This document shows, in pieces, positions 34,378-59,451 of a stretch of 64,000 bases of DNA. Positions within the stretch are counted from its first letter, which is position 1, and each line of letters opens with the position of its first letter. The position numbers and the translations under genes were made by a program. The DNA comes from Lachnospiraceae bacterium GAM79 (GTDB lineage: Bacteria; Bacillota; Clostridia; Lachnospirales; Lachnospiraceae). The notes beneath the pieces are model-generated. The model saw only the letters and a list, made by a program, of their open reading frames with translations, was not told the DNA's origin and did no database searches. The stretch spans positions 124,001 through 188,000 of the forward strand of contig CP085928.1 of assembly GCA_020735665.1 (NCBI GenBank), in the 5' to 3' direction.

Positions 34378-34755
34378 ATGGATATGAATAGTTTAGCACA
34401 CACCAAATGGAATTGTAAGTATCACATTGTATTTGCACCAAAGTATCGTAGAAAAATAATATATGGACAGCTAAAGCGTGATTTAGGTAACTTCCATTTT
34501 AAAGAAGGTGGACAGAATTATCATTCTGTAGGTGAGGTGGATGAAATTCAAGTGATTATTCAGGATAGTGGTTCTGTAAAAGCACCTGAATATTCTCATA
34601 CAGCGAATAGGTCATATGCCATTGTGCAAAATGGTAAACTTAAGCATCTTACATTTTATGATGAAACACACAGTCAGGTAGTCAGTATTGATCTGATGCA
34701 TCAGCATCACGGCTTGTATTTGCTTAGGCATAACAATCACTCGGGAGATTATTAG
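34378..34755 (+). pseudogene. IS200/IS605 TnpA 5' fragment fused to part of an unrelated gene
   Basis: The first about 36 codons (SLAHTKWNCKYHIVFAPKYRRKIIYGQLK) are the unmistakable start of a Y1 (HUH) IS200-type transposase. The catalytic HUH and tyrosine parts are missing. The frame continues into about 88 codons of different sequence (NGKLKHLTFYDETHSQVVSIDLMHQHHGLYL...), which resembles the C-terminus of phage- or toxin-associated proteins of the KLKHITFYD..xIDLxHxHxG type. Upstream (34202-34377) are the short hairpins typical of IS200 left ends (CCACTTGCTATGCGAGTGG; GTTGGTTCGCCAAC). It is a deletion chimera and unlikely to be functional. Confidence 0.7.
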
Positions 34756-37007: not shown

Positions 37008-37235
37008 TTATAAAGTTAATCTTGAGAATGGTAAATCTTCGTCATACTTTTCATATGCGTTATTCTTAAAGTACAGGAATTCTTCATTAAGATTTCTCCA
37101 TTCTATAAAGGCTTCAAGATAACGTAATTCGTTGAGATACCGCTCATTATCATCCGTTATGTCAAGCATGTGTTCATTGAGAATTTCGTAGCGTTCTTCC
37201 AGGCGTTTATACTTCTTTTTGTACTTTTTAGCCAT
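37008..37235 (-). CDS. Small charged coiled-coil protein following the IS30 transposase
   Basis: The 75-residue protein starts MAKKYKKKYKRLEERYEILNE and is helical, with alternating K/E/R and hydrophobic positions. The start at 37235 overlaps the transposase stop by eight bases (ATGGCTAA). The ribosome binding region GGAAGGTGG lies inside the transposase gene, so it is translationally coupled. Its function is unknown; it could be a transposase regulator or passenger. The longer frame from 37289 is not preferred. Confidence 0.6.
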   Translation of the reverse strand: MAKKYKKKYKRLEERYEILNEHMLDITDDNERYLNELRYLEAFIEWRNLNEEFLYFKNNAYEKYDEDLPFSRLTL

Positions 37236-38610: not shown

Positions 38611-38819
38611 ATGGTAATCCTTTCCAACAGACAGATAACCATATGAGATTGTAACAAAAACTATGTGCAAGAGTAAATTCCGGATTTCTGTTTTTGAGGG
38701 TAAAAAAACTGGAATTTAAAAATTCACTTTACGATGTGGAATAAGGGCAGAGGGAGATGATTCCTCTGCTGACTTATTTTACAACTTGAAAAAAGTGTTC
38801 GAGAAATCAAATAAAATGT

Positions 38820-38848
38820 TTTACAACGAAATTGAGATAATATATAAT
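38820..38848 (+). promoter_or_regulatory. Promoter of the defense operon
   Basis: TTTACA (38820-38825) and TATAAT (38843-38848) are separated by 17 bases, about 40 bases before the XRE regulator gene. Because the regulator is the first gene, autoregulation here is likely. No further gene is seen in the gap 38719-38888. Confidence 0.6.
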
Positions 38849-38888: not shown

Positions 38889-39158
38889 ATGGCTGTATCA
38901 TACAATAAATTATGGAAATTAATGATTGATAAAAAAATAAATAAGAGCCAACTGTGTAAAAAGATAAAAATTAGCAGTAGTACTATGGCTAAAATGACAA
39001 ATGAAGAGATGGTTGCTATGACCGTATTAGAAAAAATATGTGCTGAATTGGAATGTGATATATCTGATATTATGGAGTTTACTGATTTAGCTGAAGTAAA
39101 GAAAAAAATCCATAAAGAGAATACAAGTCCAGATAATGGGACAGTAAATGTGAGATAA
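38889..39158 (+). CDS. XRE-family helix-turn-helix regulator of the defense operon
   Basis: The 89-residue protein is almost entirely a Cro/C1-type HTH (about residues 5-70: LWKLMIDKKINKSQLCKKIKISSSTMAKM, then LEKICAELECDISDIMEF), the compact HTH_26 type frequent upstream of methyltransferases. GCACGGAGGATAAT gives a strong ribosome binding site. It is 15 bases upstream of the cytosine methylase. Control proteins in this position usually delay nuclease or helicase expression until the methylase has protected host DNA. Confidence 0.88.
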   Translation: MAVSYNKLWKLMIDKKINKSQLCKKIKISSSTMAKMTNEEMVAMTVLEKICAELECDISDIMEFTDLAEVKKKIHKENTSPDNGTVNVR

Positions 39159-39173
39159 TGAGGTAGAACAACC

Positions 39174-40445
39174 ATGAATGAAAATGGATTAAATTATATT
39201 GATCTCTTTGCTGGTGCCGGTGGACTTTCAGAAGGATTTATACAAAGTGGCTATAGACCGGTTGCACATGTGGAAATGAATGAGCATGCAGCAAAAACAA
39301 TAGAAACAAGAATAGCATATTATTACCTAAAAGATAATGGCAAAATTAAAAGTTATTATGATTATGAAAAAGGAAAAATAACCAGAGAACAACTTTTGGA
39401 GAAAATACCAAAAGAGGAACTTAAGACTGTAATTAATCAAGAAATGTCAGAATCCACAATTAAAGGGATTTTCAACACAATTGATGATATCAAAAGGGAA
39501 AAAGAAATTGATAAGATTGATGTAATTATAGGTGGTCCTCCCTGCCAAGCATATTCTTTGGTGGGAAGAGCACAGAGCAGTCATATGATTGTTCCAATGG
39601 AAGATGATCCAAGAAATGAATTATATAAGATGTATGTTCAATTCCTTAAGAAGTATAAGCCAAGAATGTTTGTGTTTGAGAATGTGGCGGGCATAAAGAC
39701 TGCGAGAGGTGGGGTAGCATTTAAAAATCTCCAGACATATATGAAACGTGTGGGTTATGAAATTGATTATCATGAGTTGAACGCTCAGAATTTTGGAGTA
39801 TTACAAAGTAGAAAAAGAGTAATTATAGTAGGTTGGCTTAAAGGTACAGGTTATGAATATCCGTCATTTGATGTGATCCATAGTAAAGCAGAAGTATGGG
39901 ATTTATTGAAGGATTTACCACCATTGACTCCAGGTATTGAGGCAAGAGAACATACGATGAATGATATGCGAAGACTAAAAAAATATGTTAAAGATAATGG
40001 TATTCGCATGAAATCAGATGTATTAACAGGTCATGCTGCAAGACCACATACTGCACAGGATATTGAAATATATAAGAGAACAATAGACATGTGGTTTGAA
40101 AACGAACAGCATGAACGTTTGAAATATGATGATTTACCAGAAGATTTGAAAACACATAAAAATAGAACTTCATTTGTAGATCGATTTAAAGTTGTTGAGG
40201 GTGATATGGATCATTGTCACACAATACTTGCTCATTTATCGAAAGATGGACATTATTTCATTCATCCAGATATAGAGCAACATAGATCAATTACAGTGCG
40301 GGAAGCAGCAAGAATACAGTCGTTTCCAGATAATTATTATTTTGAAGGACCAAGGACAGCACAATTTGTTCAGGTGGGGAATGCGGTTCCGCCAATGATG
40401 GCAAAGGTAATAGCAGATAAAATAAAAGAACAATTAAGAAAATAA
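39174..40445 (+). CDS. DNA cytosine-C5 methyltransferase (DrmMII-like)
   Basis: The 423-residue protein has the ordered C5 motifs: I DLFAGAGGLSEGF (SAM), IV GGPPCQAYSLVGR (catalytic Cys about residue 126), VI VFENVAG, VIII QNFGVLQSRKRVIIVG, and IX/X ITVREAARIQSFPDNY..QVGNAVPPMMAKVIA. The target-recognition region lies at about 250-350. It follows the XRE gene and is followed after 17 bases by a SNF2 helicase gene. A C5 methylase is the modification component of class 2 DISARM, whereas the drmD-type helicase next to it belongs to class 1. The recognition sequence is unknown. Confidence 0.92.
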   Translation: MNENGLNYIDLFAGAGGLSEGFIQSGYRPVAHVEMNEHAAKTIETRIAYYYLKDNGKIKSYYDYEKGKITREQLLEKIPKEELKTVINQEMSESTIKGIFNTIDDIKREKEIDKIDVIIGGPPCQAYSLVGRAQSSHMIVPMEDDPRNELYKMYVQFLKKYKPRMFVFENVAGIKTARGGVAFKNLQTYMKRVGYEIDYHELNAQNFGVLQSRKRVIIVGWLKGTGYEYPSFDVIHSKAEVWDLLKDLPPLTPGIEAREHTMNDMRRLKKYVKDNGIRMKSDVLTGHAARPHTAQDIEIYKRTIDMWFENEQHERLKYDDLPEDLKTHKNRTSFVDRFKVVEGDMDHCHTILAHLSKDGHYFIHPDIEQHRSITVREAARIQSFPDNYYFEGPRTAQFVQVGNAVPPMMAKVIADKIKEQLRK

Positions 40446-40462
40446 AATTGGAGGTTTTGCAA

Positions 40463-43051
40463 ATGGGTATTGTTGAAAGTACATATGCTGAGTTAAAGCA
40501 ACAAGAATTGAAAAATAATCCATATAGTTGTTTGCATATGGCTGATATTGACATCAATCCTCATCAGGTTGAAGCATTCACATTTGCACTATCTTCATTA
40601 AAGCTTGGTGGAGCAATTCTTGCAGATGAGGTAGGTCTTGGAAAAACTATTGAGGCTGGCTTGGTCATCAAGTATTTGCTATGCAGTGGAAAAAATAAAA
40701 TACTACTTATTATGCCATCAAATCTGCGAAAGCAATGGCAAGTTGAATTAGAAGAGAAATTTGATATTGATTCATTAATTGTGGATAGTTCTAACTGGGA
40801 GGATTATCTCGCAAAGGTAAAGAGTAAACAAGCAGTAATTATTGCTTCCTACCACTTTGCCTCAAAAAGAAAAGCAGAGTTCGGAAAGATAGCTTGGGAT
40901 TTTTGTGTATTTGATGAAGCACATCGGCTTAGGAATGTATATAAGAATGGTTCAAAGATGGCTAACTCATTATATGAATTAACAAAGGGAATTCCAAAGA
41001 TTCTATTAACTGCGACTCCTATGCAGAATACTTTACTTGATATATATGGACTTGTTCAGTTTATCGATGATAGAGTTTTTTATAGTAAGCAGATATTTTC
41101 CGAAAGATATTTGCGAGGAGAAGATTACAATGATTTGAAGGCTTGTTTAGAACCTGTTGTGCAAAGAACTTTACGAAAAGAAGTAGCAGAGTATATCCAA
41201 TTTTCAGAGCGTAAAGAAATGACAATTGATTTTGAACTATCGCCAATGGAGATAGAACTTTATGTGATGATAAATAATTATCTGAAAAAGGAAATCTTGT
41301 ATGCTTTGCCCAATTCACACAGAACACTTATTACATCTGTTATTAGAAAATTGCTTGCATCATCAAGTATGGCAGTTGCAGAAACCTTCAAGGTATTAAA
41401 AGGCAGACTTGAAACTTTGAAGGAAACAACTAGAACTGAATCAGCGGATGAAAGTATTGATTTTTTCCTTAGTTTTTTTGATGATGATGAAATAGAGAAG
41501 GATGATGATAGTAAGCAGGATGAATTATACACAAGAGAAAAGGTAAATGAATTTATTCAGCATGAAATAGATGAGGTAACAGCCATTATTAATAAAGCTG
41601 AAAGTATAAAAAGAAATGCGAAGATGACAGCCTTGAAACAGGCAGTGGAGAAAGCTTTTGTATTTCAAAATGAAGCTGGCATAAAACAAAGAATTGTTGT
41701 GTTTACGGAATCTATTAGAACGCAACAATACATGTTTGAAGAATTATCTCATGCCGGATATGAAGGTCAGATACTTAAGTTTAATGGTAGTACAAATGAT
41801 CCTGTTACTAAACAGATTTATAAGGCATGGAAAGCTAGAAACTATGGAAAGTATGTGGGTAGTAGAAATGTTGAATTGAAGAATGCCATCGTAGAAGCAT
41901 TTAGGGATGAATACAAAATTTTGCTTGTAACAGATTCCGGTTCGGAAGGATTGAATCTTCAGTTTTGTAATACGATTATAAACTATGACCTTCCTTGGAA
42001 TCCGCAGAAGATAGAGCAGCGAATTGGTCGCTGTCATCGTTATGGACAAAAGAACGATGTTGTGGTTATTAATTTGCTTAATACTCAGAATGTAGCAGAT
42101 AAGAGAGTATATGAAATTCTTTCAGAAAAATTCGAGTTATTCCAAGGCGTATTTGGTGCATCAGATAAAGCTATTGGATTATTAGAAAGTGGAGCAGATT
42201 TTGAAAAAAGAGTTACACTTATTTATCAGGAATGTAAAACGACATCAGATTTTACAAAGCAATTTAAGAATTTGGAAAAGGAATTAGAAAAGAAACGAAA
42301 CAAGAAAATGGATGAACTGAAATCCATATTTACATATAAGACAGAGGAACAACATAAGTTGCATTTTAATAGTATTATGGAAGAAATAGCGGAATATGAT
42401 TCACAGTTTGAGTATTGGAATGGTAGAAGTAAAGAGGAAAATGGGACATGTCCAAAGTACTATGAAACTAATATAGACTTGGAAATTCCGGGAATTCAAC
42501 ACGGATATTTACTTGTTGGTGGTTCTTATGTTGGTGAGATTCTTGAAGATGCAGTATTTGAAATTATTGATATAACAGGGAAGATATATGGTGTTTCAGA
42601 TGAGTTGGCTAGAGAGCTTTGTGAAAAATTGCAGGAGCAGTGCCTGGAAGAAAAGACACCAAATAATCAAGAAATCCTTTCATATATTGACAAAGTGGAT
42701 GAATTTATGCAGCAGAAATATGCAGAATCTAAAAGAACAGTTTTGATTGCTAATCAGAAAAAATTGGATAATTGGCTACAATTAAGAAAAGAGGAATATT
42801 TGCTCAGAGTCAAGGATACATCAGAATTAGACGAGCTTAAAGAAAAATATGCAATTGAAGGCGATTTTAGACAGAAGATTGCATTAAAAAAACAAATAGA
42901 AATTTTAGAAGAACAGAAACAAAAAATGGTACGGGCATTTCATGATGAAATGTCGACATTGGAAGAAGAAGCTGTAAATATGCAGAAGCAGTTTGCAGAA
43001 GATATATTGGTAAACACACAATTGGTAACAAAGATAGTGATTAAGTTTTAG
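40463..43051 (+). CDS. SNF2-family helicase (DrmD-like)
   Basis: The 862-residue SF2 ATPase has motif I LADEVGLGKTIEAG (about residue 55), motif II FDEAHRLRN (about 151), motif III LLTATPMQN, and C-terminal motifs LLVTDSGSEGLNLQFCNTIINYDLPWNPQKIEQRIGRCHRYGQ, in pieces. This set is typical of SNF2/RapA-like translocases and of DrmD in class 1 DISARM. A long coiled region lies toward the C-terminus (about 760-840). The frame opens with TTG at 40448, but ATG at 40463 (MGIVESTYAEL) follows TTGGAGG. It precedes the Mod gene by nine bases. Confidence 0.88.
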   Translation: MGIVESTYAELKQQELKNNPYSCLHMADIDINPHQVEAFTFALSSLKLGGAILADEVGLGKTIEAGLVIKYLLCSGKNKILLIMPSNLRKQWQVELEEKFDIDSLIVDSSNWEDYLAKVKSKQAVIIASYHFASKRKAEFGKIAWDFCVFDEAHRLRNVYKNGSKMANSLYELTKGIPKILLTATPMQNTLLDIYGLVQFIDDRVFYSKQIFSERYLRGEDYNDLKACLEPVVQRTLRKEVAEYIQFSERKEMTIDFELSPMEIELYVMINNYLKKEILYALPNSHRTLITSVIRKLLASSSMAVAETFKVLKGRLETLKETTRTESADESIDFFLSFFDDDEIEKDDDSKQDELYTREKVNEFIQHEIDEVTAIINKAESIKRNAKMTALKQAVEKAFVFQNEAGIKQRIVVFTESIRTQQYMFEELSHAGYEGQILKFNGSTNDPVTKQIYKAWKARNYGKYVGSRNVELKNAIVEAFRDEYKILLVTDSGSEGLNLQFCNTIINYDLPWNPQKIEQRIGRCHRYGQKNDVVVINLLNTQNVADKRVYEILSEKFELFQGVFGASDKAIGLLESGADFEKRVTLIYQECKTTSDFTKQFKNLEKELEKKRNKKMDELKSIFTYKTEEQHKLHFNSIMEEIAEYDSQFEYWNGRSKEENGTCPKYYETNIDLEIPGIQHGYLLVGGSYVGEILEDAVFEIIDITGKIYGVSDELARELCEKLQEQCLEEKTPNNQEILSYIDKVDEFMQQKYAESKRTVLIANQKKLDNWLQLRKEEYLLRVKDTSELDELKEKYAIEGDFRQKIALKKQIEILEEQKQKMVRAFHDEMSTLEEEAVNMQKQFAEDILVNTQLVTKIVIKF

Positions 43052-43060
43052 GAGGCTACC

Positions 43061-44581
43061 ATGGAGAAAAAAGGCAAGTTAGAATTGACTTGGGTTGGTA
43101 AATATGAGGAAGAGAAACTTGAACCAAGAATATTAATTGAAGATAAATCAAAATCATATGGTGACCCGGACACAGAAAATATGTTGATTCATGGAGATAA
43201 CCTTCTTGCGTTAAAAGCGTTAGAGAATAAATTTAGAGGAAGAGTAAAGTGTATATATATTGACCCACCGTATAACACGGGTAGTGCGTTTGCACAGTAT
43301 GATGACAATCTTGAACATAGTATATGGTTAAGTATGATAAGGAAACGTTTACTTATACTTAAGGAATTATTATCAGAAGATGGTACTATTTGGATAAGTA
43401 TAGATGATGATGAGCAGGCATATTTGAAAGTATTGTGTGATGAAATATTTATGCGTTCTAATTTCGTTAGTAATGTTATTTGGGAAAAAAAATTTTCTCC
43501 TCAAAATGATGCAAAATGGTTATCTGATTCACATGATTTTATTTTAGTCTATGCAAAAAATAAAAACCTATGGAAACCGAATTTATTGCCGAGAACTGCA
43601 GGAATGAATAGTAGATATAAAAATCCGGACAATGATCCAAGAGGACCATGGACATCAAGCGATTTTACAGCTCGAACATATAGTGGAAATACGGATTATC
43701 CAATTACAACCCCAAGTGGTAGAGTTGTAACGCCAACAAAAAGTCGTAGTTGGATTTCGTCTAAAGAAGAATTTGACAGGTTAGTGAGTGATAATAGAAT
43801 TTGGTTTGGCATTAATGGTAATAATGTGCCAAGAAAAAAGACGTTTTTAAGCGAAGTTAAAAGTGGAAGTGTGCCAATGACTATCTGGAAATATGAAGAT
43901 GTAGGTTCGACGCAGGATGCAAAAAAAGAAGTGAAGCAGATTAATCCTGAGGATCCATTTGCTACACCAAAACCAGAAAAGTTAATTGAACGTATTCTAG
44001 AAATTGCCACAAAGCCAGGAGATATTATCTTGGATTCTTTTTTGGGATCAGGTACAACTATTGCAGTTGCTCATAAAATGAACAGAAGGTGGATTGGAGT
44101 AGAAATTGGAGAACAAGCATATAACCAATGCAAATTAAGATTGGATAAAGTTATTGATGGAAATGATGGTCTTGATATATCTAAAAAATTAGGTTGGCAA
44201 GGTGGTGGGGGATATAAATTCTACGAACTTGCAGAACCATTACTTGTAAAGAACAAAGTTCTTCCAGTTTATCAAATAAATCCATCCTATACATGGGATA
44301 TGGTATGTGAAGCTATTTGCAAGATAGAAGGATTTACCTATGAACCATCTGGGGAGTTTCAAGGACATTCATCAGAGAATCGATTCATACATATTACGGA
44401 AGAATTTGTTAATACAAAGTATGTGATGTCGATAATGAAGAACTTAGGGGATAAGCAGAGTTTACTTATCTATTGTAAGAAAAATCAAGCTGACATGATT
44501 CTTCCAGAGAATGTGGAAGTGAAAAAAATACCAAAGGATTTATTGGATAAATGTAATTTTGAAAGTGAGGTGCAGGAATAA
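43061..44581 (+). CDS. Site-specific N6-adenine/N4-cytosine DNA methyltransferase (type III Mod-like)
   Basis: The 506-residue beta-class amino-methyltransferase has the catalytic motif IV YIDPPYNTGSAF (about residue 68) before the SAM motif I ILDSFLGSGTTIAVAH (about 326), the order seen in type III Mod subunits. The N-terminus MLIHGDNLLALKALENKFRGRVKCIYIDPPY is also Mod-like, and the region between is the presumed target-recognition domain. Stop and the next start overlap (TAATG), so it is coupled to a Res-like helicase gene. In the DISARM frame it would stand in the drmMI position. As a pair with 44581 it looks like a type III restriction-modification module. Confidence 0.9.
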   Translation: MEKKGKLELTWVGKYEEEKLEPRILIEDKSKSYGDPDTENMLIHGDNLLALKALENKFRGRVKCIYIDPPYNTGSAFAQYDDNLEHSIWLSMIRKRLLILKELLSEDGTIWISIDDDEQAYLKVLCDEIFMRSNFVSNVIWEKKFSPQNDAKWLSDSHDFILVYAKNKNLWKPNLLPRTAGMNSRYKNPDNDPRGPWTSSDFTARTYSGNTDYPITTPSGRVVTPTKSRSWISSKEEFDRLVSDNRIWFGINGNNVPRKKTFLSEVKSGSVPMTIWKYEDVGSTQDAKKEVKQINPEDPFATPKPEKLIERILEIATKPGDIILDSFLGSGTTIAVAHKMNRRWIGVEIGEQAYNQCKLRLDKVIDGNDGLDISKKLGWQGGGGYKFYELAEPLLVKNKVLPVYQINPSYTWDMVCEAICKIEGFTYEPSGEFQGHSSENRFIHITEEFVNTKYVMSIMKNLGDKQSLLIYCKKNQADMILPENVEVKKIPKDLLDKCNFESEVQE

Positions 44582-47313
44582 TGAGTTCAGTAGATAAAAT
44601 CAAATGGGCTATGAGCCTGCGTGATCCTCAGTATGAAGCGCTACAATACTTTGATGCAATCAGTTCCAAGATTGAGTATAGAACTAGTTCAAAAGCTGAA
44701 GCAGAGAAAATAGCATCAGAGAATTGCCAAGCTCCACATACAATATCTGTAGATAAGGAATTTGATTTTCCATCATTCTGCTTTGATATGACAACCGGTA
44801 TTGGTAAGCCCCGTTTAATGGGTGCATGTATTTATTATTTATACAAAACAAAAGGGTACAAACATTTCTTTATTCTGGCACCAGGAAATACGATTTACGA
44901 CAAGATGCGTCGAGAGGCGGTCCCGGGACATCCAAAATACATGTTTAAGGGACTTGAAGCAGAGATGGGAAGACCCAAAGTTTATGATGGGGAAAATTAT
45001 TTATCATACCCGGTAAGATATATCCAAGAGGAAATGGTGGTAGAAAAAACATCTGATATTCAGATATTTATCTTTAATATTTCAAAGATTTTTACTAGGG
45101 GAGATATCGAATTTAAATTTCACAAGTTTAATGAAAATTTGGGTGGCTCTTTTGCGGATGTGTTACGTTCGTTTGATGACTTGGTTATTTGTATGGATGA
45201 AGCGCATCGTTACTATGCCCCAGCATCAAAGAAAGCGATTAATTATCTTAATCCAGTGTTGGGATTAGAATATACTGCTACACCTAAAAGTACAAATAAG
45301 AATATTATTTATCACTACGGATTAGAGGATGGAGCTGGGAAGTTTTTGAAGATTCCGGTTGTTATGGGAAGAACAAATACAGCAGGATATTCAGTTGATG
45401 ATATAGAGGAAATGAAGTTGAAAGATGGAATCAAGCTTCATGAGAGAAGAAAGTCCATCGTATATAAATATTGTATAGATAATCAATTAGAACAAGTAAA
45501 GCCAATTGTTTTGATAGCTTGTAAAGATACAACACATGCTAGAAAAATAAAAGAAAAAATAGATTCCGATGCTTTTTTTGGAGGTCGTTATGTTGGTAAG
45601 GTTATTGAAATTGACTCCAGCACAAGTGGTGCAGAGACAGAAGAAAACATTCAGAAATTACTAACCATTGAGAAAAATACCAATCCAATTGAGATTGTGC
45701 TGCATGTATATAAGCTGAAAGAAGGTTGGGATGTAAATAATCTGTTTACGATTATCCCACTTAATGCTGCAAAGAGTGATATATTGGCACTTCAAACTAT
45801 TGGTAGAGGATTGAGGCTTCCTTTTGGTGAGATAACGGGTATTGAGGAATTAGATACCTTGGATATTGTTGCTCACGATCATTATCGAGAGATTGTGGAT
45901 GATATCAAAAATAACCCTGTATTTAAGAAGAGAAATCTTGATGAGGAAGATATACCGAACACAAAAACAGTTATGGTAGAGCCAGCAGTTGAGAACCAGC
46001 AGATTTCATTATTTGATGAAGCGTTATGCGAAAGTAAAGTGAAATCATACCAAGATTTGAATAATGAAAATGTGGTGGAGAATCTGTTTGCTGAGTATCA
46101 GAAAGCATTTGTAAAGAAAGTAGCACCCAAGAAGTCCGAAAGTGATAGTGGACAGATGTCTATTTTTGATTATTTTGCTAACGATAATGAAAAAGAAACA
46201 AATGATGGCACAGCATCAGAGCACAAAATGACACAGACGGGCATGGGCACTGATGCAGTTGATACATCATTTACTGTACATCAGGGGGATGCTTCATTAC
46301 AGATTGATTTACAGAAGTCATCTGGCAGTAAGAATGTATTGCCATATGCAAAACAAGAGTTTATCAAGAAAGTTGAAGAGTTAAAGAAAGTTGCTATCTC
46401 TGTTCCAAAGATTGGAATTAGCTATAGTTCAACAATTACATTTAAGTCTTTTACTGTTAAACGAAATATTATGGATTTTGATGTTGCGGCATCGAGAATC
46501 GAGAGATATGACGCTGTAAATGGTAAGTTGCTGCAAGTGCTGGATGCAGATGCACTTATTGTAGAAAATCCTGAGAATATGCTTGCAGTTTCTTTATTGG
46601 AGAGTATTCCGGAGTTTAGTTCTGATGATGCAGAATTTATTCTTGAGGTGGTTGATCAGTATCTCGCATTAATCGAAGGTACGGATGAAGAAAAAAAGAA
46701 GATTGTCCGTAGATATGCAACTGTTATAGTAGAGGACTTAAGAAAACAGATATATGCGTCAAAGGAAGAAAGCACTGAGTTTGTATTTAACGTTCAGAAA
46801 GACCTTATTGTATTCAAATCATTTGCGAAGAATATGAAGGAAAATGGACGACTGAATTTTAAGAAGGAAGTGCCAGATAAGAAAAATATTAAGCAATATT
46901 TGTTTGAAGGCTATAAAAAATCATATTATGCAGAGAATGCATTTGATAGTGATGATGAGAGAAGGTTGTCCGTGGTATTAGAAGAGGATTCAGAAGTTAT
47001 TAGATTTATAAAGCCGCCTTTGAATCAGTTAGGACTATTTTATAAGGCAGCAAAACAGTATAATCCTGATTTCTTAGTAGAGACGGCTGATAAGAAATAT
47101 ATGATTGAAGTGAAGGCTGCAAATCAAACAGATAATGAAGATGTACAGGAAAAAGCAAAGGCTGCAATTAAGTGGTGCGAATGTGCATCACAGGTGGATG
47201 CGGACGGAAAGACTTGGGAGTACCGCCTAGTGCCAGGGGATAAGATTATAGTAGGTAATACATTCAAATATGTAATTGGTATGGCAATTCCTGTTGTAGT
47301 AGACGGAGAATAA
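44581..47313 (+). CDS. Type III Res-like SF2 helicase/nuclease with altered Walker A
   Basis: The 910-residue protein has an SF2 core with motif II CMDEAHRYY (about residue 206), LEYTATPKS, and C-terminal helicase motifs LKEGWDVNNLF and LQTIGRGLRLPFG. The C-terminal part has a PD-(D/E)xK-type nuclease signature: NPDFLVETADKKYMIEVKAANQ (D..E-V-K). In the Walker A the expected GKT reads GKP (TTGIGKPRLMGA; Pro77, codon CCC at 44809-44811). The hydroxyl residue that ligates magnesium is missing, so ATPase function is doubtful unless this is an assembly error. It is otherwise full length, and is coupled to Mod upstream and DrmA-like downstream (14-base gap). Confidence 0.85.
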   Translation: MSSVDKIKWAMSLRDPQYEALQYFDAISSKIEYRTSSKAEAEKIASENCQAPHTISVDKEFDFPSFCFDMTTGIGKPRLMGACIYYLYKTKGYKHFFILAPGNTIYDKMRREAVPGHPKYMFKGLEAEMGRPKVYDGENYLSYPVRYIQEEMVVEKTSDIQIFIFNISKIFTRGDIEFKFHKFNENLGGSFADVLRSFDDLVICMDEAHRYYAPASKKAINYLNPVLGLEYTATPKSTNKNIIYHYGLEDGAGKFLKIPVVMGRTNTAGYSVDDIEEMKLKDGIKLHERRKSIVYKYCIDNQLEQVKPIVLIACKDTTHARKIKEKIDSDAFFGGRYVGKVIEIDSSTSGAETEENIQKLLTIEKNTNPIEIVLHVYKLKEGWDVNNLFTIIPLNAAKSDILALQTIGRGLRLPFGEITGIEELDTLDIVAHDHYREIVDDIKNNPVFKKRNLDEEDIPNTKTVMVEPAVENQQISLFDEALCESKVKSYQDLNNENVVENLFAEYQKAFVKKVAPKKSESDSGQMSIFDYFANDNEKETNDGTASEHKMTQTGMGTDAVDTSFTVHQGDASLQIDLQKSSGSKNVLPYAKQEFIKKVEELKKVAISVPKIGISYSSTITFKSFTVKRNIMDFDVAASRIERYDAVNGKLLQVLDADALIVENPENMLAVSLLESIPEFSSDDAEFILEVVDQYLALIEGTDEEKKKIVRRYATVIVEDLRKQIYASKEESTEFVFNVQKDLIVFKSFAKNMKENGRLNFKKEVPDKKNIKQYLFEGYKKSYYAENAFDSDDERRLSVVLEEDSEVIRFIKPPLNQLGLFYKAAKQYNPDFLVETADKKYMIEVKAANQTDNEDVQEKAKAAIKWCECASQVDADGKTWEYRLVPGDKIIVGNTFKYVIGMAIPVVVDGE

Positions 47314-47326
47314 ACGGAGGTTGTAG

Positions 47327-50300
47327 ATGGCTGATATAAAGGATTTTAAACATGCTATTGTTCGACAGAAGATTTTAGATGCAGTACGAAAAGACTTAAT
47401 AGGACCAACATCAGATTGTGAACAATTGAATGAAGTACCAACGAGTAGTTATATTACGGGATTATTATATCCGGCTGATACAGATGTAACGGAAGATGAA
47501 AATTACAATGATGTAGAGTTTACAGAAAAGAATTTCGATGCTGATGGAGAAACTTTGGAGGCAGGAATTTTTGAAGAAGAGGAACCAGAGGATAGAGTAA
47601 AAGGTGGTTTTCAGAAGCCGTCTTCTATAGGTGTGTCTTTCTATGTCTCTGATGATGTTCAAAAGGTTAATGCTTATATTAATTGGGGAAAGTATTATGC
47701 AGAACAGGTGCAAGGTGAAGTAATAGATGAAACCTTAGAAGAAGATGCAGAGAATAAGAAAAAGAAGAAACATACCATATATATTCGTGAGCAGATGAAT
47801 GATGTTGTGGAAATCGATTTTAATCTGATGGGGCGTTCGAAGCAGATTCCACTTGAGTCTAATGGAAACATCTATATTTATGTTATGAAGATGCAGTTAG
47901 ACAATGGATACAAGATGGTATCGGTTTATTTGCATAATAATGATAAGTTAGATGGCGATGAAAAAGAATATGCAAAGGTAATGTTCCAAGTGGAGATGCT
48001 CATAGCAGATGATTTGATGAGTCCTATTTTTGTACCAGAATATCTCTGTAGAAAAGTTGAATTAGAGGATGAATATTATTATAAAGGCAGACCAGTTTAT
48101 GCAAGAGGAAGAGGTTGTGCTGCTACTTGGGAAAAGAAAGCAGAAGAGATAAATGCAACTGCTATAAAATCATCATTTATTCCAGATTATGAAATTCCAA
48201 GTGTAAGTGCACAGATAGATGATATGCCGGAGCATGCCTTTTCGATGCTTCAGATGGGCTCACCAAGGAAAAAGTCAGAAGTTATTCAGAATCTTCGTAC
48301 ATTGACAGAAATGTATGGAAGTTGGATTACAGATGCATTGACAAACGACGAAGCTATGCATGATGATAAATTTAAGGCAACAGGTCAGACTATTATTGAT
48401 AAATGCAATGATGCAAATCGTAGGATGAATGCTGGAATTGATTTGATTGAAAACAATGATAAGGTATATCAAGCGTTTGTATTTATGAATCAAGCAATGT
48501 ATTTACAGAGAAGTATTACAGCTTTTTCAAAAGATTATGGTAATGGCATTCCTTGCAGCTTAAGAGATTATATGACTGATATGCCAGAAAAAGGAAGAAA
48601 GAAAGATCACAGTGAGTGGAGACCATTCCAGATTGCATTTGTTCTTTTGAATTTGTATGGGATTATGGATGGTGAGTCTCCGGAACGAAATATTGTTGAT
48701 TTATTATACTTCCCTACTGGTGGTGGTAAGACAGAGGCATATTTAGGGCTGATTGCTTTTACTATAGCATATAGGAGACTGACAGCTTCAGATGAAACCG
48801 ATTATGAGAAAGATGGTGGAGTAACAGTATTTTTAAGGTACACGCTTCGTTTACTTACAACTCAGCAGAGAGACAGACTGATGCGTCTTATTGTTGCAAT
48901 GGAACAATTGCGTGAGAAGAATGAAAAATTATATGGTAAGGAAAGAATTTCAATTGGATTCTGGGTTGGAGGTAATGTTACCCCAAATAAATTTAGCGAA
49001 TACAGCGATTCTGATCAATTTAAGAAGAAAGAATTTATAAGGAAGCTTACAAAGCAGATTATTAAATGCCCTTATTGTGGTAAGGAAATCACACGGGATG
49101 AATATGACATCAATGAAAAGGGAAAGTATGTCAAAATTCACTGTGCAGATAAGAATTGTATGTTTTCGTTAAAAACAGGAAGAACCATACCGGTTTATCT
49201 TGTTGATGAGGAAATTTATGCAAAGTGTCCTACTGTGATTATTTCGACTGTAGATAAATTTGCGAGACTTCCATGGTCTGAACGAGTTGGTTTGCTATTT
49301 GGCAGAACAGATAGATATTGTAGTAGATGTGGACATATTGCTATTGGAGAAAAGCATGCAGGAAGACATAATGCAGATGTCGCAGCGGGATTGGAAAGGG
49401 CTGAAACGGTTGCATGTAAACAATTCTATCCTCCTGAGCTAATTATACAGGACGAGCTTCATTTAATTACTGGTCCTCTTGGAACGATTTATGGTGGATA
49501 TGAAACTGTTGTAGAAGAGATGTGCTGTATTGAGAAGAATGGAAAGAAGATTCGACCTAAGTATATTGTTTCAACAGCAACTATTAGAAATGCTGGGGAA
49601 CAGATTAAGTTTCTTTATGGGAGAAATGAATTTGCACAATTTCCGCCAAGTGGCTTTGATACAAGAGATTCATTTTTTATTAAGGAAGTACCGCTTCCAA
49701 CTGAAAATTTAGTTGATGCTTCAGAAGAAAAAATCAGTAGAATGATTAGTGATGGAAAAAAGCCATTTCGTCAATATGCTGGTATATGTGCGAGCGGACA
49801 ATCTGTAAAAACAACGCTTATTCGTTTGTATTCGATTATTTTGCAAACAGCACTAGATATAGCAAAGAATCCGGAATATGAGGATTATATTGATCCATAT
49901 TACACATTGATTGGCTACTTTAATAGTATTCGAGAATTGGGTGGTGCAGTGCGCCTTCTTGACGACGATATAGCAAGCCGTATTCGTGTTGTAAAGAATA
50001 AATATAATAGCTCAGAACAGAGATATCTCAGTTTTGAGGGAAAGAAGGAAATTACATCTCGCATACCTTCATGGGAGATTGCGCAGGTTCTTGAAAAGTT
50101 AGCAATTTCTTATGATAAAAACAAGGAGAAGCAAGGCTGTTATGATGTTGTCATTGCAACTAATATGATAGCGGTAGGTATGGATGTTGACCGTTTAGGA
50201 CTTATGTCAGTTGTAGGTCAGCCAAAGCAGAACTCTGAATATATTCAGGCAACAAGCCGTGTGGGTCGACAGCATCCTGGAATTATTTTTACTGTTTATA

Positions 50301-50794
50301 ATCCTTACAGACCAAGGGATTTGTCTAATTATGAGAATTTTGTTGGTTTCCACTCACAGATGTATAGATATGTAGAAGGAACTACAGCAACGCCATTTGC
50401 GGCTAGAGCTAGAGACAGAGTATTACATGCATTGGTAGTTTCTTTACTAAGATTACAGGTAGAGACGATGGCTGATAATGGTGGAGCATCAAACATTAAT
50501 GATATTTCTGATGAACAAATCAAAGATATAAAAGACAAAATTCTTGAGCGAGTTAAGATAACTGCACCATCGTCTTATGTAGATACAGAGAAAGAAATGG
50601 ATGAGTTTATCAATACTTGGAAGAACATTGCAAAAGACGAAAAGCTATATTATTTTGTTCCAGCAGTAGCTGATGATAAGAAGAGGCTACTTACATACTA
50701 TGGCGAATATTATGGAGACAAAGAAAAACCAACACTAAGTTCTATGCGTGATGTTGAGCAATCATCAACAGTTTTTTATTGGGAGGGTGTCTGA
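47327..50794 (+). CDS. drmA: DrmA-like helicase of a DISARM-type system
   Basis: The 1155-residue protein has helicase motif I YFPTGGGKTEAYLG (about residue 465), motif II IQDELHLITGPLGT (about 708) and STATIRNAGEQ. The C-terminal block MIAVGMDVDRLGLMSVVGQPKQNSEYIQATSRVGRQHPG (read in pieces) is characteristic of the DrmA/DUF1998-associated helicases. Two cysteine clusters (CPYCGKEITRD..CADKNCMF and YCSRCGHIA) sit between motifs. It overlaps the DrmB gene by one base (TGATG). In DISARM, DrmA and DrmB form the DNA-sensing core. The gene order A-B-C here is exactly that of the DISARM core. Confidence 0.9.
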   Translation: MADIKDFKHAIVRQKILDAVRKDLIGPTSDCEQLNEVPTSSYITGLLYPADTDVTEDENYNDVEFTEKNFDADGETLEAGIFEEEEPEDRVKGGFQKPSSIGVSFYVSDDVQKVNAYINWGKYYAEQVQGEVIDETLEEDAENKKKKKHTIYIREQMNDVVEIDFNLMGRSKQIPLESNGNIYIYVMKMQLDNGYKMVSVYLHNNDKLDGDEKEYAKVMFQVEMLIADDLMSPIFVPEYLCRKVELEDEYYYKGRPVYARGRGCAATWEKKAEEINATAIKSSFIPDYEIPSVSAQIDDMPEHAFSMLQMGSPRKKSEVIQNLRTLTEMYGSWITDALTNDEAMHDDKFKATGQTIIDKCNDANRRMNAGIDLIENNDKVYQAFVFMNQAMYLQRSITAFSKDYGNGIPCSLRDYMTDMPEKGRKKDHSEWRPFQIAFVLLNLYGIMDGESPERNIVDLLYFPTGGGKTEAYLGLIAFTIAYRRLTASDETDYEKDGGVTVFLRYTLRLLTTQQRDRLMRLIVAMEQLREKNEKLYGKERISIGFWVGGNVTPNKFSEYSDSDQFKKKEFIRKLTKQIIKCPYCGKEITRDEYDINEKGKYVKIHCADKNCMFSLKTGRTIPVYLVDEEIYAKCPTVIISTVDKFARLPWSERVGLLFGRTDRYCSRCGHIAIGEKHAGRHNADVAAGLERAETVACKQFYPPELIIQDELHLITGPLGTIYGGYETVVEEMCCIEKNGKKIRPKYIVSTATIRNAGEQIKFLYGRNEFAQFPPSGFDTRDSFFIKEVPLPTENLVDASEEKISRMISDGKKPFRQYAGICASGQSVKTTLIRLYSIILQTALDIAKNPEYEDYIDPYYTLIGYFNSIRELGGAVRLLDDDIASRIRVVKNKYNSSEQRYLSFEGKKEITSRIPSWEIAQVLEKLAISYDKNKEKQGCYDVVIATNMIAVGMDVDRLGLMSVVGQPKQNSEYIQATSRVGRQHPGIIFTVYNPYRPRDLSNYENFVGFHSQMYRYVEGTTATPFAARARDRVLHALVVSLLRLQVETMADNGGASNINDISDEQIKDIKDKILERVKITAPSSYVDTEKEMDEFINTWKNIAKDEKLYYFVPAVADDKKRLLTYYGEYYGDKEKPTLSSMRDVEQSSTVFYWEGV

Positions 50795-52557
50795 TGAATT
50801 TTTATAAAAAATTGGGCGAGATTCGTCCGAATCAGTTAATAACTACATATGGACCAGGCTCGATAATGGATGCTGTAAATGATTCATTGACAGTTTTAGA
50901 TATAGAGTACTGGGATACTAACAATATTGGTAAAGAAATTAGAGATGCAAGATTGGCTAGTTATATGAATGTTCGACGATTCTTTATGCCAAAGACAGGT
51001 GGAAAAGAGGATATTCCAGTTGTGTCATTTCCATACTATCATGTGTGTTCAAAGGGAACATGTAAATTCTTATTTGATATGAGAGATTACTTTGATATGG
51101 ACCAGTACAAAAAGAATCAAGGTGAAGTGAAATGCCCTAAGTGTGGATTTCCAGCATACCCTTCGAGATTTATAACGGTATGCGAAGATGGGCATATGGA
51201 CGATTTCCCTTGGAGATGGTGGGTACATCATGGAGAAACAAGTTGTAAAGAAGATATGTACCTAAAATCAATGGGTAATACTTCATCACTTGCAGAACTC
51301 CGTGTTGAGTGTAATTGCGGTGCAAGGAGAGTTATGTCTGGAGCAATGCAGAAGGAAAAATTTGCTGGTCTATGCTGTTCAGGAAACCATCCGCATAGAC
51401 CAGGAGCAGAGGCGAAAATTTGTAAGAAGAGTGTAATACCTAGCCAGCGTGGTGCATCTAATGTGTATTTTACAGTCACAAGAAATGCAATATCAATTCC
51501 ACCTTGGACAAATCCTATTAATGATATCATGGGTGCACAAAGAGCAACTATTGAAACATTGGTAGAGGCTATGGGAGAAGAGGCAGGTCTTTCATTTGCT
51601 TATCAGAAGTATTTTGGAGATAAATATTCTTATGAAGACTTTATAGCTGCCTATGATAGATTAAGCCAAAATATCAAAGAGTTTACTGAACTTAAAGAAA
51701 TGGAGTATGCAGCTATTACGCATCATGAGGATGTCGAGTATCAACATGATGTTAAGTATTTCAAAGCAGAAGAAGTTACTTTGAGTGAAAGTTTAAAAGA
51801 GTATATTTCTAGGATTATTAAAATACATAGATTACGTGAAGTACGAGTTTTGACAGGTTTTACAAGATTGGAAGCACCAGAACCAGAAGTGGATGAGCAG
51901 TCACATATCGTAAAATTGAAGTGCTCTTCGGGAGAAAAATGGCTTCCGGCAGTCGAAATCAATGGTGAAGGTGTATTCATTGAATTAAATAAGGAAAAAA
52001 TAAACCAGTGGATGCAGATAGAGACTGTGAAATCTCGTTCTGATAAATATGAGGAATGTTATGCAGCATATTGTCAGAAAAAAGGATGGGAGAATTTTAA
52101 ACCAAGAAATGCAGAGTATGTGTTGTTACATACACTTTCACATATGTTGATTAAGGAAATGTCTATGCAGTCAGGATATTCATCATCTGCATTACATGAA
52201 CGCATTTATAGTAGTGAAAATATGTGTGGAATTTTAATTTACACAGGTGCGGCGGATAAGGAAGGTTCACTAGGTGGACTTGTTGAACTTGGCGGAATGA
52301 ATAAGTTTTTGCCGCTTTTAAAAGGGGCACTGGAGAATGGTTTAACATGTACAACAGACCCAGAATGCTTTATGAAGAATCCGACGAGTGAGAGATTAAA
52401 TGGGGCTGCCTGTCATTCTTGTACTATGATATCAGAAACTGCATGTGAAAATGGTAACCGCCTACTTGATAGAGCATTAGTAGTACCGGTACCGGAGCAT
52501 GAGAAAATGGGATATTTCAGAGAATTGGTGAGAGATTTATGTGGAATACAAGTGTAA
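50794..52557 (+). CDS. drmB: DrmB-like DUF1998 protein
   Basis: The 587-residue protein has the opening IRPNQLITTYGPGSIMDAVNDSL, a zinc-binding block (VKCPKCGFPAYPSRFITVCEDGHMDDFPWRWWVHHG, in pieces) and a second cluster (ECNCGARR; CCSGNHPH). The DUF1998 C-terminus contains YVLLHTLSHMLIKEMSMQSGYSSSALHERIY and GAACHSCTMISETACENGN. This is the DrmB type that pairs with DrmA. The start at 50794 is coupled to the drmA stop and preceded by GGGAGGG. The 50779 opening is not preferred. The 3' end overlaps drmC by 19 bases. Confidence 0.9.
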   Translation: MNFYKKLGEIRPNQLITTYGPGSIMDAVNDSLTVLDIEYWDTNNIGKEIRDARLASYMNVRRFFMPKTGGKEDIPVVSFPYYHVCSKGTCKFLFDMRDYFDMDQYKKNQGEVKCPKCGFPAYPSRFITVCEDGHMDDFPWRWWVHHGETSCKEDMYLKSMGNTSSLAELRVECNCGARRVMSGAMQKEKFAGLCCSGNHPHRPGAEAKICKKSVIPSQRGASNVYFTVTRNAISIPPWTNPINDIMGAQRATIETLVEAMGEEAGLSFAYQKYFGDKYSYEDFIAAYDRLSQNIKEFTELKEMEYAAITHHEDVEYQHDVKYFKAEEVTLSESLKEYISRIIKIHRLREVRVLTGFTRLEAPEPEVDEQSHIVKLKCSSGEKWLPAVEINGEGVFIELNKEKINQWMQIETVKSRSDKYEECYAAYCQKKGWENFKPRNAEYVLLHTLSHMLIKEMSMQSGYSSSALHERIYSSENMCGILIYTGAADKEGSLGGLVELGGMNKFLPLLKGALENGLTCTTDPECFMKNPTSERLNGAACHSCTMISETACENGNRLLDRALVVPVPEHEKMGYFRELVRDLCGIQV

Positions 52558-53231
52558 AAATTGAGTACATTGCAGGGCTGATAGTAGATGCACTTGAAAA
52601 TTATTCTGTTAATGGAGAGAGTGCACAGTTTTATCGTGTGATTAAAGAACTTAGAAAACATTTTACTAATTGTTCGGAAGGGGAGATAATAGATATAATT
52701 AGCCTTTGCATGAAAATGTATTCGTCAAAGAAAATTGAACACGCAGAGCTTGTCCTTACTGCACCAGATTCATTCCGTGTGATAGCATTAAGAACCAAAG
52801 ATACAATGCGTAATCTGATAGAGAATACAGAAAAGAGTCTTACTATAACTGGTTATTCAATCTCAGATTATTTTGCCGAAATGCTTGATGTTATTATTGA
52901 AAAAAGCCAGCAAGGAGTATATGTTCGTATATATGTGAATGATACAGAAAAGCAGAAGGAAGTGCTTGACAGACTGATGTCATATCGTTCGCGATTCTTA
53001 CAGATATATGAATATCAAAAGCAAGAAGATGACAAGATGGCAGCATTGCATGCGAAACTTATTGTATCAGATGTAAAGAAATCACTGGTGTCGTCAGCTA
53101 ATCTTTCATATCACGGAATGCAAGGAAATATTGAAATGGGATTCTTGATTGAATCCCATGACAAGGCAAAGCAGATAGAGGAGGTTATGAAGGAAATGGT
53201 AAGGATGAAGGTGTTTGGAAAACAAAAATAA
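52539..53231 (+). CDS. drmC: DrmC-like phospholipase-D-fold nuclease
   Basis: The 230-residue protein has a single PLD HKD motif, AALHAKLIVSDVKKSLVSSANLSYHGMQGNIEMGF (HxK near residue 172, then SxN). The paired half-site is weak (TITGYSISDYFAEMLDVI), so a dimer would form one active site. It is the third core gene of DISARM; in the described systems drmC is the least essential component. It starts inside drmB. Its stop ends the operon before a 212-base gap with a new promoter region. Confidence 0.88.
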   Translation: MWNTSVKIEYIAGLIVDALENYSVNGESAQFYRVIKELRKHFTNCSEGEIIDIISLCMKMYSSKKIEHAELVLTAPDSFRVIALRTKDTMRNLIENTEKSLTITGYSISDYFAEMLDVIIEKSQQGVYVRIYVNDTEKQKEVLDRLMSYRSRFLQIYEYQKQEDDKMAALHAKLIVSDVKKSLVSSANLSYHGMQGNIEMGFLIESHDKAKQIEEVMKEMVRMKVFGKQK

Positions 53232-53443: not shown

Positions 53444-56400
53444 ATGCAGAGTCCAATCCATGAAGGATATGAATATCAGGATTATTTTACTGTTTCAATA
53501 ATTCTACAACTGATGCTTCAACAGATAGATGCTGAGCTGATTATCGATCGTAAGGATTTCAGCGGAGATAAATTTGATGATTTAAAGTTGAAGATGTCTA
53601 ATGGTAACATTGAATTTCAAATTAAGTATTCTGATGATGAAAGCTCCCATAAACTTACTAAAGATGACTTGGCAAATGGCAATGGACATGATACTGCGTT
53701 GTGTGATCTTTTCGCTTCTTGGAAAATGAGAAAAGAATCCGAAAATGATACTCAAATAAAGTTATGTCTAGCGTGGAACATGCCTACTGATGATGATCCA
53801 ATTACAGAGTATTTGAAGCCTATTCAAGAACAATCTCTGCCTTTTTCGGTTGCTGCATATTCGTTTGACGGTGACGTGTTTTGGCCAGCAGAAAAATTAC
53901 CACCAAAAAGTTGGAGAAAGTTTAATACGGCGATTAAGTCAGGACTTATTGATAGAGAAGCCTTTTTAGCTTTTTGTAATGATCTCACGATTATTTTAGA
54001 AATGCCTAAAGCAAGTCTGGATTTAAAGAATCCTGGAGCCCTAGAAAATGTAATTATTCGGCAAACTGAGAAATTGGGGGTAGGAATATATCCAAATGAT
54101 GCTCTCAACGTGGAGGATATTATTTATAAACTTGCAACGGAAGTAAAACATTCTAGAGCGATAGGAAACAGACTTTATACAAATATATTAGTGGGGCGCC
54201 TTGGATTAATAATGGATTACGGGAAATTTGATCAAAGATTTCCGGTGGATTCAACGCATCAGATTATACTTGGTGATGAAATTGAAAGGTTACACAGAGT
54301 AATTCTTGATTCAAAACGTGTCATTATTTCAGGCAACCCTGGATCTGGAAAGTCTTGGCTTGTTGATGAATACGTAGATAAACTTACGAGTGAAGATAGT
54401 AAAGTTATACATTATAATTGTTTCCAGTCTTTACAGGATACAAATAGTCTTGAGAGAATACGTGTCACTTCCTTATATGGAAATCTAGTTTCGCAGATAG
54501 TGGAACAATGCCCAGAGCTAGTTGTACATAAAAATACAATCTTTGGTGCTAATAAAGCAGAGCTTGAAAATTTGCTTTGTTTCATTGAAGAAGAATTCTA
54601 TTTAGTGGTAGATGGTCTTGATCATATAGCTAGAGAATATGAGCTAAATAAAGATTTTATTTCCCACTCTGAAATTGAAATCATTTCGGAACTGTTGGAA
54701 ATCGATTTTCCTGATAACTGCTATGTAATAATATCATCGCAGCCAATAAATGAAATAGAGAAGTTTAAAAGCAAGAACTACAGTGTATTTGAGATTGAGC
54801 CTTGGGGAATAGAACAAGTAAAATCCTTGATGACGACTTTTCAAATTAGTGATGATACTATTGAAGATGATGATATTTCATCAATAAGTGCATATATACT
54901 TAAGAAATCTCAGGGAAATGCTCTATACCTTAGTTATATCCTGCGCCAATTACGAAACTTAGATGAGAATAAAAAATTAATAGACGAAATACCTGACTAC
55001 GATATCAGTCTCTCTAAGTATTATTCCTATTTGTATACAAAAGTTCATAATAACCGCACGGTTAATGCACTTTGTGGGGCAGATTTCTATCTTGGTTTAA
55101 ATGATTTAATGGAGATTACAGGGGACGGCAAATATGTAGAACAAGATATATCGGTGCTTCATCCATTATTGATAGAAAATACACTAAGCGGTGGCTTTTC
55201 AATCTATCATGAAAGTTTCCGCCGTTTTGTTTTAGATTCATTGAAAGATAAAAAAGTGGATTTAGAGCGAAATGTCTATGGTATTCTTGCTGATTGGTTA
55301 CAGAAGAAACCATTTTTTGAATTTGATAAGTCATTTTATTATCTTACTGAATTGCTATATAAAATCAAGAGAGATGCAGAAAATATTGAATTGATTGAGA
55401 AAGAATTTGTTCTTAAATCAGTATCAGAGGGTTATTCTCGAAAACGTATAAGAATGAACTTGAATTGTATTATCCGAAGTGCGGGTAGAATTAGAAATTT
55501 AGTTGCGTTGGCAACAGCAGGTGAGTTGTTGGCAATGCTCGATGATATGAACGAATTCGATAGTACTGGAGAAGAGTACTTCCAAGCAATATGTGATATA
55601 AAGGGTGCTTCTAAACTAAATCAATTAATGCAAATTGATGGAAAACCAACCTTTGATATGAATACAGGCCGAATTGCGTGTTATATTTCTTCGAAAGCGG
55701 GTATTACACCTTGGTGGGAACTGTATTTAGATACAGAGGCTAAACAGTATAAAATTGAGGAACTTAAATACTATTATAGATATTATCTTGATGAACAAGG
55801 AGTTAGTATCATTCCTAAGCTTATGGAGGCAATAGAAAAAGAAAAGGTTTCAATAAGAAACCAATGTATTGAGATTGCGTATGATGAGTTACAGGACTAT
55901 ATAGAATTTGATGAAATTGCTTCAATTGCGGAGGAGCAACAACTGATTAATTGGAAAAACTATCTTTCGTATATTGAGACTGGATATTATCCGCAAAGTG
56001 AAGTTTCCTTTGAGGTTACAATTGGAAACTTGGAAAAAATCAAAACATTGAGGATGCCAGGAGAAAAAGATATAATGATTTTTAAAGAATTTTCCTCACA
56101 AATATATTATTTGGCTGTAGCGGGGGATAGGAAAGTAATAGAGAAAGTCTGTGCGGATTGTAAAAATATTAACTGGTTCTATAATTGGATAATATATTCT
56201 GTCAAGATGTCAGAATTGTGTGCACACACAACACAAATGGATTCTAAAACAATCTGTGAAACAGCACTTACTAATTTGAAACTATTGCTACAGGATACGG
56301 AAGTTTTCAAAGGAGAACCACGTACTTGTGATTTGTATTTTCTACAGAATGAATTAACAAGGTCATATGAACTGGCAGTAGAGCTGATTGTCAAAAATGG

Positions 56401-59284: not shown

Positions 59285-59451
59285 TTTGTAAGAATTGTAT
59301 ATTGTATATAAGATGTGCAGTGGAAATCAGCTTGATGTATGAAAGGGATGAAATTGTTTGTAAAAGTAGATAATTTGTAGGAGAAATTTATGTGAAAGAT
59401 TTTTTACCAGATTAGACAAGAGTGTTTATTGGGAAAGAAGGTGTAACACGA

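What the first reader, a model, noticed from the sequence alone, without database searches (positions are those of the whole stretch)
39174..53231. Hybrid DISARM-like operon with both C5 and N6 methylases and an embedded type III-like Mod/Res pair
Seen: an ordered run of XRE regulator, C5-cytosine methylase, SNF2 helicase, Mod-like methylase, Res-like helicase/nuclease, DrmA-like helicase, DUF1998 DrmB-like and PLD DrmC-like genes, with overlaps or gaps of only a few bases. Known: class 1 DISARM has drmD plus an N6-adenine methylase, class 2 has drmE plus a C5 methylase. Here the class 1 helicase and the class 2-type methylase co-occur, together with a Res-like nuclease not in either description. 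It could be a third arrangement or two systems fused in one transcript.
Basis: partly seen in the sequence, partly recalled or inferred. Interest (0 to 1): 0.7.

Follow-up and report, generated by a model that had tools for sequence, protein, structure and literature searches.

The report
DISARM variant with type III restriction
A gut bacterium carries a seven-gene anti-phage system in which a complete restriction enzyme (type III, with its own helper helicase) sits inside a DISARM operon, an arrangement repeated in at least 17 other loci, mostly from gut Clostridia, and absent from the class definitions of DISARM that I could read.

Summary
In detail: HTH regulator, C5-cytosine methylase, SNF2 helicase, type III Mod and Res, DrmA, DrmB and DrmC lie in one tight + strand run (38889-53231). 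It is neither chance nor an insertion scar: 18 distinct loci have the same seven genes in the same order (L002 and L100 with a broken frame), and all four new loci in a held-out test fitted. DrmA, DrmB and DrmC are DISARM; hybrid DrmA forms its own clade, weakly attached to class 1. The SNF2 "DrmD" is not a class 1 DrmD: it is sister to helicases of three-gene SNF2-Mod-Res systems such as Eco86II (characterised, m4C). So this is a DISARM in which a helicase-associated type III module fills the slot of class 1 DrmMI, plus a C5 methylase shared with class 2. Mod's target-recognition domain is swapped between distant lineages while the rest co-diverges. C5 methylase beside DrmD is not new in itself. 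In this genome Res has GKP in Walker A where 12 relatives have GKS/T, so its ATPase may be impaired. No function was tested. Verdict: new variant of a known kind.

The parts
38820..38848 (+). candidate promoter (TTTACA-17-TATAAT)
   Evidence: consensus scan, 11 of 12 matches; the region has no more sites than shuffles, so weak
38889..39158 (+). XRE-type regulator (HTH_26), 89 aa
   Evidence: Pfam PF13443, 71 bits; small HTH genes of other families hold this place in several relatives
39174..40445 (+). C5-cytosine DNA methyltransferase (DrmMII-like), 423 aa
   Evidence: PADLOC DrmMII 553 bits, Pfam PF00145; PCQ and ENV motifs; hybrid and class 2 relatives in one clade
40463..43051 (+). SNF2-family helicase named DrmD_b; sister to type III-associated SNF2 helicases
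   Evidence: NF038318 1343 bits, over cut-off; trees
43061..44581 (+). type III modification subunit (Mod), 506 aa; variable target-recognition domain about residues 86-329
   Evidence: PADLOC MTase_III 561 bits, PF01555; solved relatives incl. EcoP15I Mod 4zcf; TRD 38% against core 82% identity
44581..47313 (+). type III restriction subunit (Res): SF2 ATPase plus C-terminal PD-(D/E)xK nuclease; Walker A reads GIGKP in this genome
   Evidence: PADLOC REase_III 394 bits, PF04851, PF08722; motif alignment; Pro codon CCC at 44809-44811
47327..50794 (+). DrmA, YprA-family SF2 helicase (short form), 1155 aa
   Evidence: NF038325 1274 bits, over cut-off; matches solved DrmA 7s9v_A at E 2e-160; tree
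50794..52557 (+). DrmB, DUF1998/MZB Zn-binding partner of DrmA
   Evidence: NF038324 591 bits, over cut-off; PF09369; ATG overlaps the drmA stop
52539..53231 (+). DrmC, PLD-type nuclease, 230 aa
   Evidence: PADLOC DrmC 340 bits, PF13091; NCBIfam DrmC_I 113 bits, under its cut-off

Best explanation
A third DISARM architecture that works as one phage-defence unit. In class 1 DISARM the slot between drmD and drmA holds DrmMI, which resembles single-chain restriction-modification enzymes. Here the same place is filled by a helicase-associated type III RM module (SNF2 helicase, Mod, Res), joined to the DISARM core DrmA-DrmB-DrmC, with a C5 methylase in front. Proposed working: the C5 methylase and Mod mark host DNA at two motifs, one kept through evolution and one that changes by swaps of Mod's recognition domain. 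On unmarked DNA, Mod-Res with the SNF2 helicase finds the variable site and Res cuts. The ends, opened further by a helicase, or the phage's own 5' overhangs, load DrmAB, which unwinds the DNA, with DrmC or Res as nuclease. Shown: gene content, fixed order, one clade, intact motifs except Res Walker A in this genome, recognition-domain swapping. Inferred: phage defence, the two marks, Res cutting, hand-over to DrmAB.
For: Same seven genes in the same order in 18 loci over several families of Clostridia and one IMG/VR contig. Held-out test: among 391 genomes of the class, all 5 with hybrid-type Res (over 1500 bits; 4 were new) had the full operon, and none of 7 with 380-514-bit Res had drmABC. 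Divergence of DrmD, Res, DrmA, DrmB, DrmC and Mod outside its TRD runs together (Spearman 0.80-0.95). DrmD sister to SNF2-Mod-Res helicases, with Eco86II inside that group. DrmA inside DISARM. The class 1 RM slot holds DrmMI, which also scores 1030 bits as a type IIG enzyme (L058) and is annotated as MmeI-like in L065, L066 and L068. DrmAB needs 5' overhangs and is damped by 5mC (PMC9142583); type III enzymes leave 2-3 nt 5' extensions (PMC3874151).
Against: No activity was tested. Linked inheritance alone would also give matching divergence and fixed order. DrmAB bound poorly to 5' overhangs under 7 nt, so type III ends of 2-3 nt would need further opening. In Eco86II the extra helicase was not needed for methylation and was not detected in the active preparation. 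Mod's TRD swaps without visible adjustment of its partners. Res in this genome has a changed Walker A, and locus L007 keeps drmABC with only the 3' part of res, so the halves can part.
Confidence: 0.6

Rival explanations
1. Two independent systems, a helicase-associated type III RM and a minimal DISARM (C5 methylase plus DrmABC), locked into one transcript and transferred together, without mechanistic contact.
For: SNF2-Mod-Res stands alone in many genomes; DISARM runs without it; L080 shows C5 methylase plus DrmA-B-C with neither DrmD nor Mod-Res; Mod TRD evolves independently of DrmAB.
Against: RM genes sit inside, between the C5 methylase and drmA, not at an end; order kept in 18 of 18 loci; the hybrid clade of Res was never seen apart from drmAB in the class sample.
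Confidence: 0.3
2. Plain class 1 DISARM whose DrmMI was lost, with the type III pair serving only as a methylase source (Mod) while Res is decaying.
For: Mod-Res occupies the place of DrmMI; Res in this genome has GKP in Walker A.
Against: In 12 hybrid relatives Walker A is intact, and in all aligned rows the DEAH/DESH, GRGLR and PD-(D/E)xK motifs are kept; Res is among the best conserved proteins of the operon (about 85% among close relatives); DrmD is not of the class 1 clade.
Confidence: 0.1

Closest known systems
Class 1 DISARM (DrmA, DrmB, DrmC, DrmD, DrmMI)
   Same: DrmA-DrmB-DrmC order; SNF2 helicase then RM-type gene before drmA; may carry a C5 methylase (L065); DrmA leans to the class 1 side
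   Different: no DrmMI; helicase from another clade; separate Mod and Res; DrmA is its own clade
Class 2 DISARM (DrmA, DrmB, DrmC, DrmE, DrmMII)
   Same: DrmAB core; C5 methylase of one clade (class 2 loci L084 and L086 nest among hybrid C5 methylases)
   Different: no DrmE; has SNF2 helicase, Mod and Res
Type III RM with an additional helicase-like ATPase gene 5' of mod (Eco86II, BspHIV; PMC8259958)
   Same: helicase-Mod-Res order; the E. coli NCTC86 helicase falls in the sister clade of the hybrid helicase
   Different: stands alone without drmABC; Eco86II Mod is about twice as long; it makes m4C, the base here is unknown
ARMADA (PMC12458937)
   Same: YprA-family helicase with RapA/BrxHII-type helicase and a methylase
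   Different: ARMADA has a PglX-like methylase and a nuclease fused to the helicase; here DUF1998 is a separate drmB, with drmC, Mod and Res

Membership tests
DISARM (core) | DrmA helicase | tested here: met
   NF038325 1274 bits over cut-off 950; solved DrmA 7s9v_A at E 2e-160; tree
DISARM (core) | separate DUF1998 protein DrmB | tested here: met
   NF038324 591 bits over cut-off 240
DISARM (core) | PLD nuclease DrmC | tested here: met
   PADLOC DrmC 340 bits, PLDc_2; NCBIfam DrmC_I 113 bits, under cut-off 133
Class 1 DISARM | DrmMI present (PADLOC definition, PMC9252829) | tested here: not met
   no gene in the operon has DrmMI among its listed matches; type III Mod and Res in its place
Class 1 DISARM | DrmD orthologous to class 1 DrmD | tested here: not met
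   sister to SNF2-Mod-Res helicases, 99 support; AU p 0.003 and 0.047; NF038317 236 bits under cut-off 610
Class 2 DISARM | DrmE present | tested here: not met
   no DrmE family match for any gene of the operon; the same library detects DrmE in L084 and L087
Class 2 DISARM | DrmMII C5 methylase | tested here: met
   PADLOC DrmMII 553 bits; tree
Type III RM | Mod with beta-class amino-methylase motifs and TRD | tested here: met
   PF01555 and DPPY; EcoP15I Mod match; variable TRD
Type III RM | Res with SF2 ATPase and PD-(D/E)xK nuclease | tested here: inconclusive
   all motifs present except Walker A, GKP here against GKS/T in relatives
Helicase-associated type III RM | SF2 helicase gene 5' of mod | tested here: met
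   helicase ends 9 nt before mod; Eco86II helicase in the sister clade
Type III RM and DISARM | methylation, restriction and phage resistance | not testable with these tools
   needs methylome and phage assays

The most novel reading that the evidence does not exclude
A single defence machine in which a sequence-guided type III restriction enzyme makes or marks the DNA ends that the structure-guided DrmAB complex then processes, so that DISARM gains a changeable sequence specificity through TRD swaps in Mod and a dedicated nuclease (Res).
Probability: 0.3. Interest if true: 0.75.

Novelty: new variant of a known kind. Interest (0 to 1): 0.5.

Why it matters
DISARM's effector nuclease and the role of DrmD and DrmE are open questions stated in the literature (PMC9142583), as is the role of the extra helicase of helicase-associated type III systems (PMC8259958). 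A natural, conserved joining of the two brings both questions into one genetically tractable operon. It also suggests that the RM part of DISARM is an exchangeable slot, and that class definitions built on DrmMI with DrmD or DrmMII with DrmE miss such loci or call them twice.

Tried and rejected
Insertion of Mod/Res into an ordinary class 1 operon in this genome: rejected, the order is shared by 18 loci. Chance neighbourhood: rejected by the held-out test. Orthology of the helicase with class 1 DrmD: rejected (AU 0.003, 0.047), though RapA, L060 and L064 are long branches. Placing hybrid DrmA firmly with class 1: not possible, joining it to class 2 is not rejected (p = 0.13). A direct repeat of the guaA 3' end marking an element: none of 13 nt or more found. 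Plasmid or phage carriage: no hybrid-like match in the plasmid collection; the Res search of phages found nothing. The founding DISARM paper (Ofir 2018) is not held, so its supplementary locus lists were not checked. Structure prediction was not used: DrmA already matches a solved structure, and no complex could be modelled.

Full report
OBSERVATION. The window (124001-188000 of a single-contig 2.96 Mb genome; its relatives are Lachnospiraceae and other Clostridia) holds one co-directional run: HTH regulator 38889-39158, C5 MTase 39174-40445, SNF2 helicase 40463-43051, Mod 43061-44581, Res 44581-47313, DrmA 47327-50794, DrmB 50794-52557, DrmC 52539-53231. Profile scores exceed the curated cut-offs for DrmD_b, DrmAS and DrmB; DrmC is strong in PADLOC but under the NCBIfam cut-off.

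A CONSERVED UNIT. A DrmA search of named genomes gave nine loci, of which seven have all seven genes in order, one (L003) starts inside mod and lacks drmC, and one (L007) keeps drmABC with only the 3' part of res. More came from unnamed species genomes: L037 with L077, L038, L039, L040, L090. As a test made after the pattern was seen, I searched 391 genomes of the class with a Res alignment. Scores were bimodal: five above 1500 bits, seven at 380-514. The four new high scorers (L097-L100) all carry the whole operon, though drmD of L100 has a broken frame; none of the seven low scorers has drmABC, and three of them are SNF2-Mod-Res. An IMG/VR contig adds L096. Total: 18 loci with the full set, window included; mod of L002 is also frame-broken. 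L090 and L098 are near-identical, so the 18 are not all equally independent. The downstream NACHT gene of the window is not conserved, so the unit ends with drmC. The regulator changes family between loci (XRE, winged helix, excisionase-like).

WHERE THE PARTS COME FROM. DrmA: the hybrids are one clade (100), attached to class 1 with support 94; joining them to class 2 is not rejected (AU p = 0.13), so their exact place among DISARM is open. Helicase: with RapA as outgroup, the hybrid DrmD is sister to helicases of SNF2-Mod-Res loci (99), class 1 DrmD lying outside; AU against hybrid plus class 1 is 0.003 with 34 rows and 0.047 with 42 rows. Such three-gene loci occur in Bacillota, Pseudomonadota and Deinococcota. 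[quoted passage not shown] I found the Eco86II locus of E. coli NCTC86 (L110); its helicase falls in the sister clade. C5 methylase: the hybrids, two class 2 loci (L084, L086; DrmE confirmed for L084) and L080 form one clade, with the class 2 pair nested inside the hybrids, so this gene moves between DISARM classes.

HOW THE PARTS EVOLVE. Among close relatives mean identity is DrmB 88, Res 85, DrmA 84, C5 MTase 81, DrmD 76, DrmC 69, Mod 62%. Mod splits: core 82%, TRD 38%. TRDs are shared across lineages against the tree: L006 and L038 share 72% in the TRD but 68% in the core; L009 and L039 68% against 73%; the window and L008 68%. Distances of Mod core, Res, DrmD, DrmA, DrmB and DrmC correlate at 0.80-0.95; the C5 MTase less (0.65-0.81). 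The C5 methylase shows no comparable variable block. Inference: Mod's target changes often, the C5 target seldom.

MECHANISM. Published work shows that DrmAB loads on single-stranded or 5'-overhang DNA, that its ATPase is reduced by 5mC, that DrmC is dispensable and that the nuclease is unknown (PMC9142583). In class 1 the gene between drmD and drmA is DrmMI, which also scores as a type IIG enzyme and is annotated MmeI-like in several loci. In the hybrids the same place is taken by Mod and Res. I therefore read the locus as DISARM with an exchanged RM slot. Whether Res feeds ends to DrmAB is a proposal; type III ends are 2-3 nt and DrmAB bound little under 7 nt, so a helicase would have to open them first. 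Shown here: architecture, ancestry, conservation of motifs, TRD swapping. Not shown: any activity.

CAVEAT ON THIS GENOME. Res Walker A reads GIGKP (residues 73-77; Pro codon CCC at 44809-44811). Twelve aligned hybrid relatives have GKS or GKT and seven stand-alone Res have GKT. The window's own Res may thus be ATPase-impaired; bench work is better begun with an intact relative.

NOVELTY AND SCORE. The parts are known; NCBI names DrmD_b and DrmAS already as DISARM, and in my samples only hybrids scored above the DrmD_b cut-off. No paper I could search describes the joint arrangement, but the founding paper is not held. I rate it a new variant of a known kind, interest 0.5.

Noticed in passing
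window 44581-47313 (Res, residues 73-77): Walker A is GIGKP here, GIGKS/T in 12 aligned hybrid relatives; motif III reads EYTATP where the aligned hybrid relatives read EFTATP. Possible loss of ATPase in this genome.
   Followed up: partly
genome positions equal to window 34.2 to about 79.9 kb: A low-G+C stretch of about 46 kb begins straight after guaA and carries the operon; no direct repeat of the guaA 3' end was found, and no integrase was looked for by profile.
   Followed up: partly
window 53444-59284 and 59422-61110: Downstream genes: a 1946-aa NACHT/STAND protein and a Schlafen-AlbA_2/RecG-like protein. In L005 a 62% identical AlbA protein follows drmC directly; weaker AlbA-like proteins follow it in L002 and L004.
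   Followed up: no
window 37228-38670 and 34378-34755: A transposase-like HTH_38 gene on the - strand and an IS200-type transposase fragment between guaA and the operon.
   Followed up: no
L080 (9477-17045): A reduced relative: C5 methylase, a 224-aa piece matching the N-terminus of DrmA, DrmA, DrmB and a short DrmC, without DrmD, Mod or Res.
   Followed up: partly
L007 and L003: Decay of the hybrid: L007 keeps drmABC and the 3' part of res only; L003 lacks drmC.
   Followed up: partly
L002 (5730-7249): mod is broken by a frame change near codon 84; MAG error or real loss of function not told apart.
   Followed up: partly
PADLOC model PDLC02572: The model labelled DrmA scores 1586 bits over the whole of a class 1 DrmD (L065); it is probably a mislabelled DrmD model.
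   Followed up: no
L065 (2206-20199): A class 1 DISARM with HTH, C5 methylase and a Vsr nuclease ahead of drmD; Vsr-like genes also lie beside several hybrid and class 2 loci.
   Followed up: no
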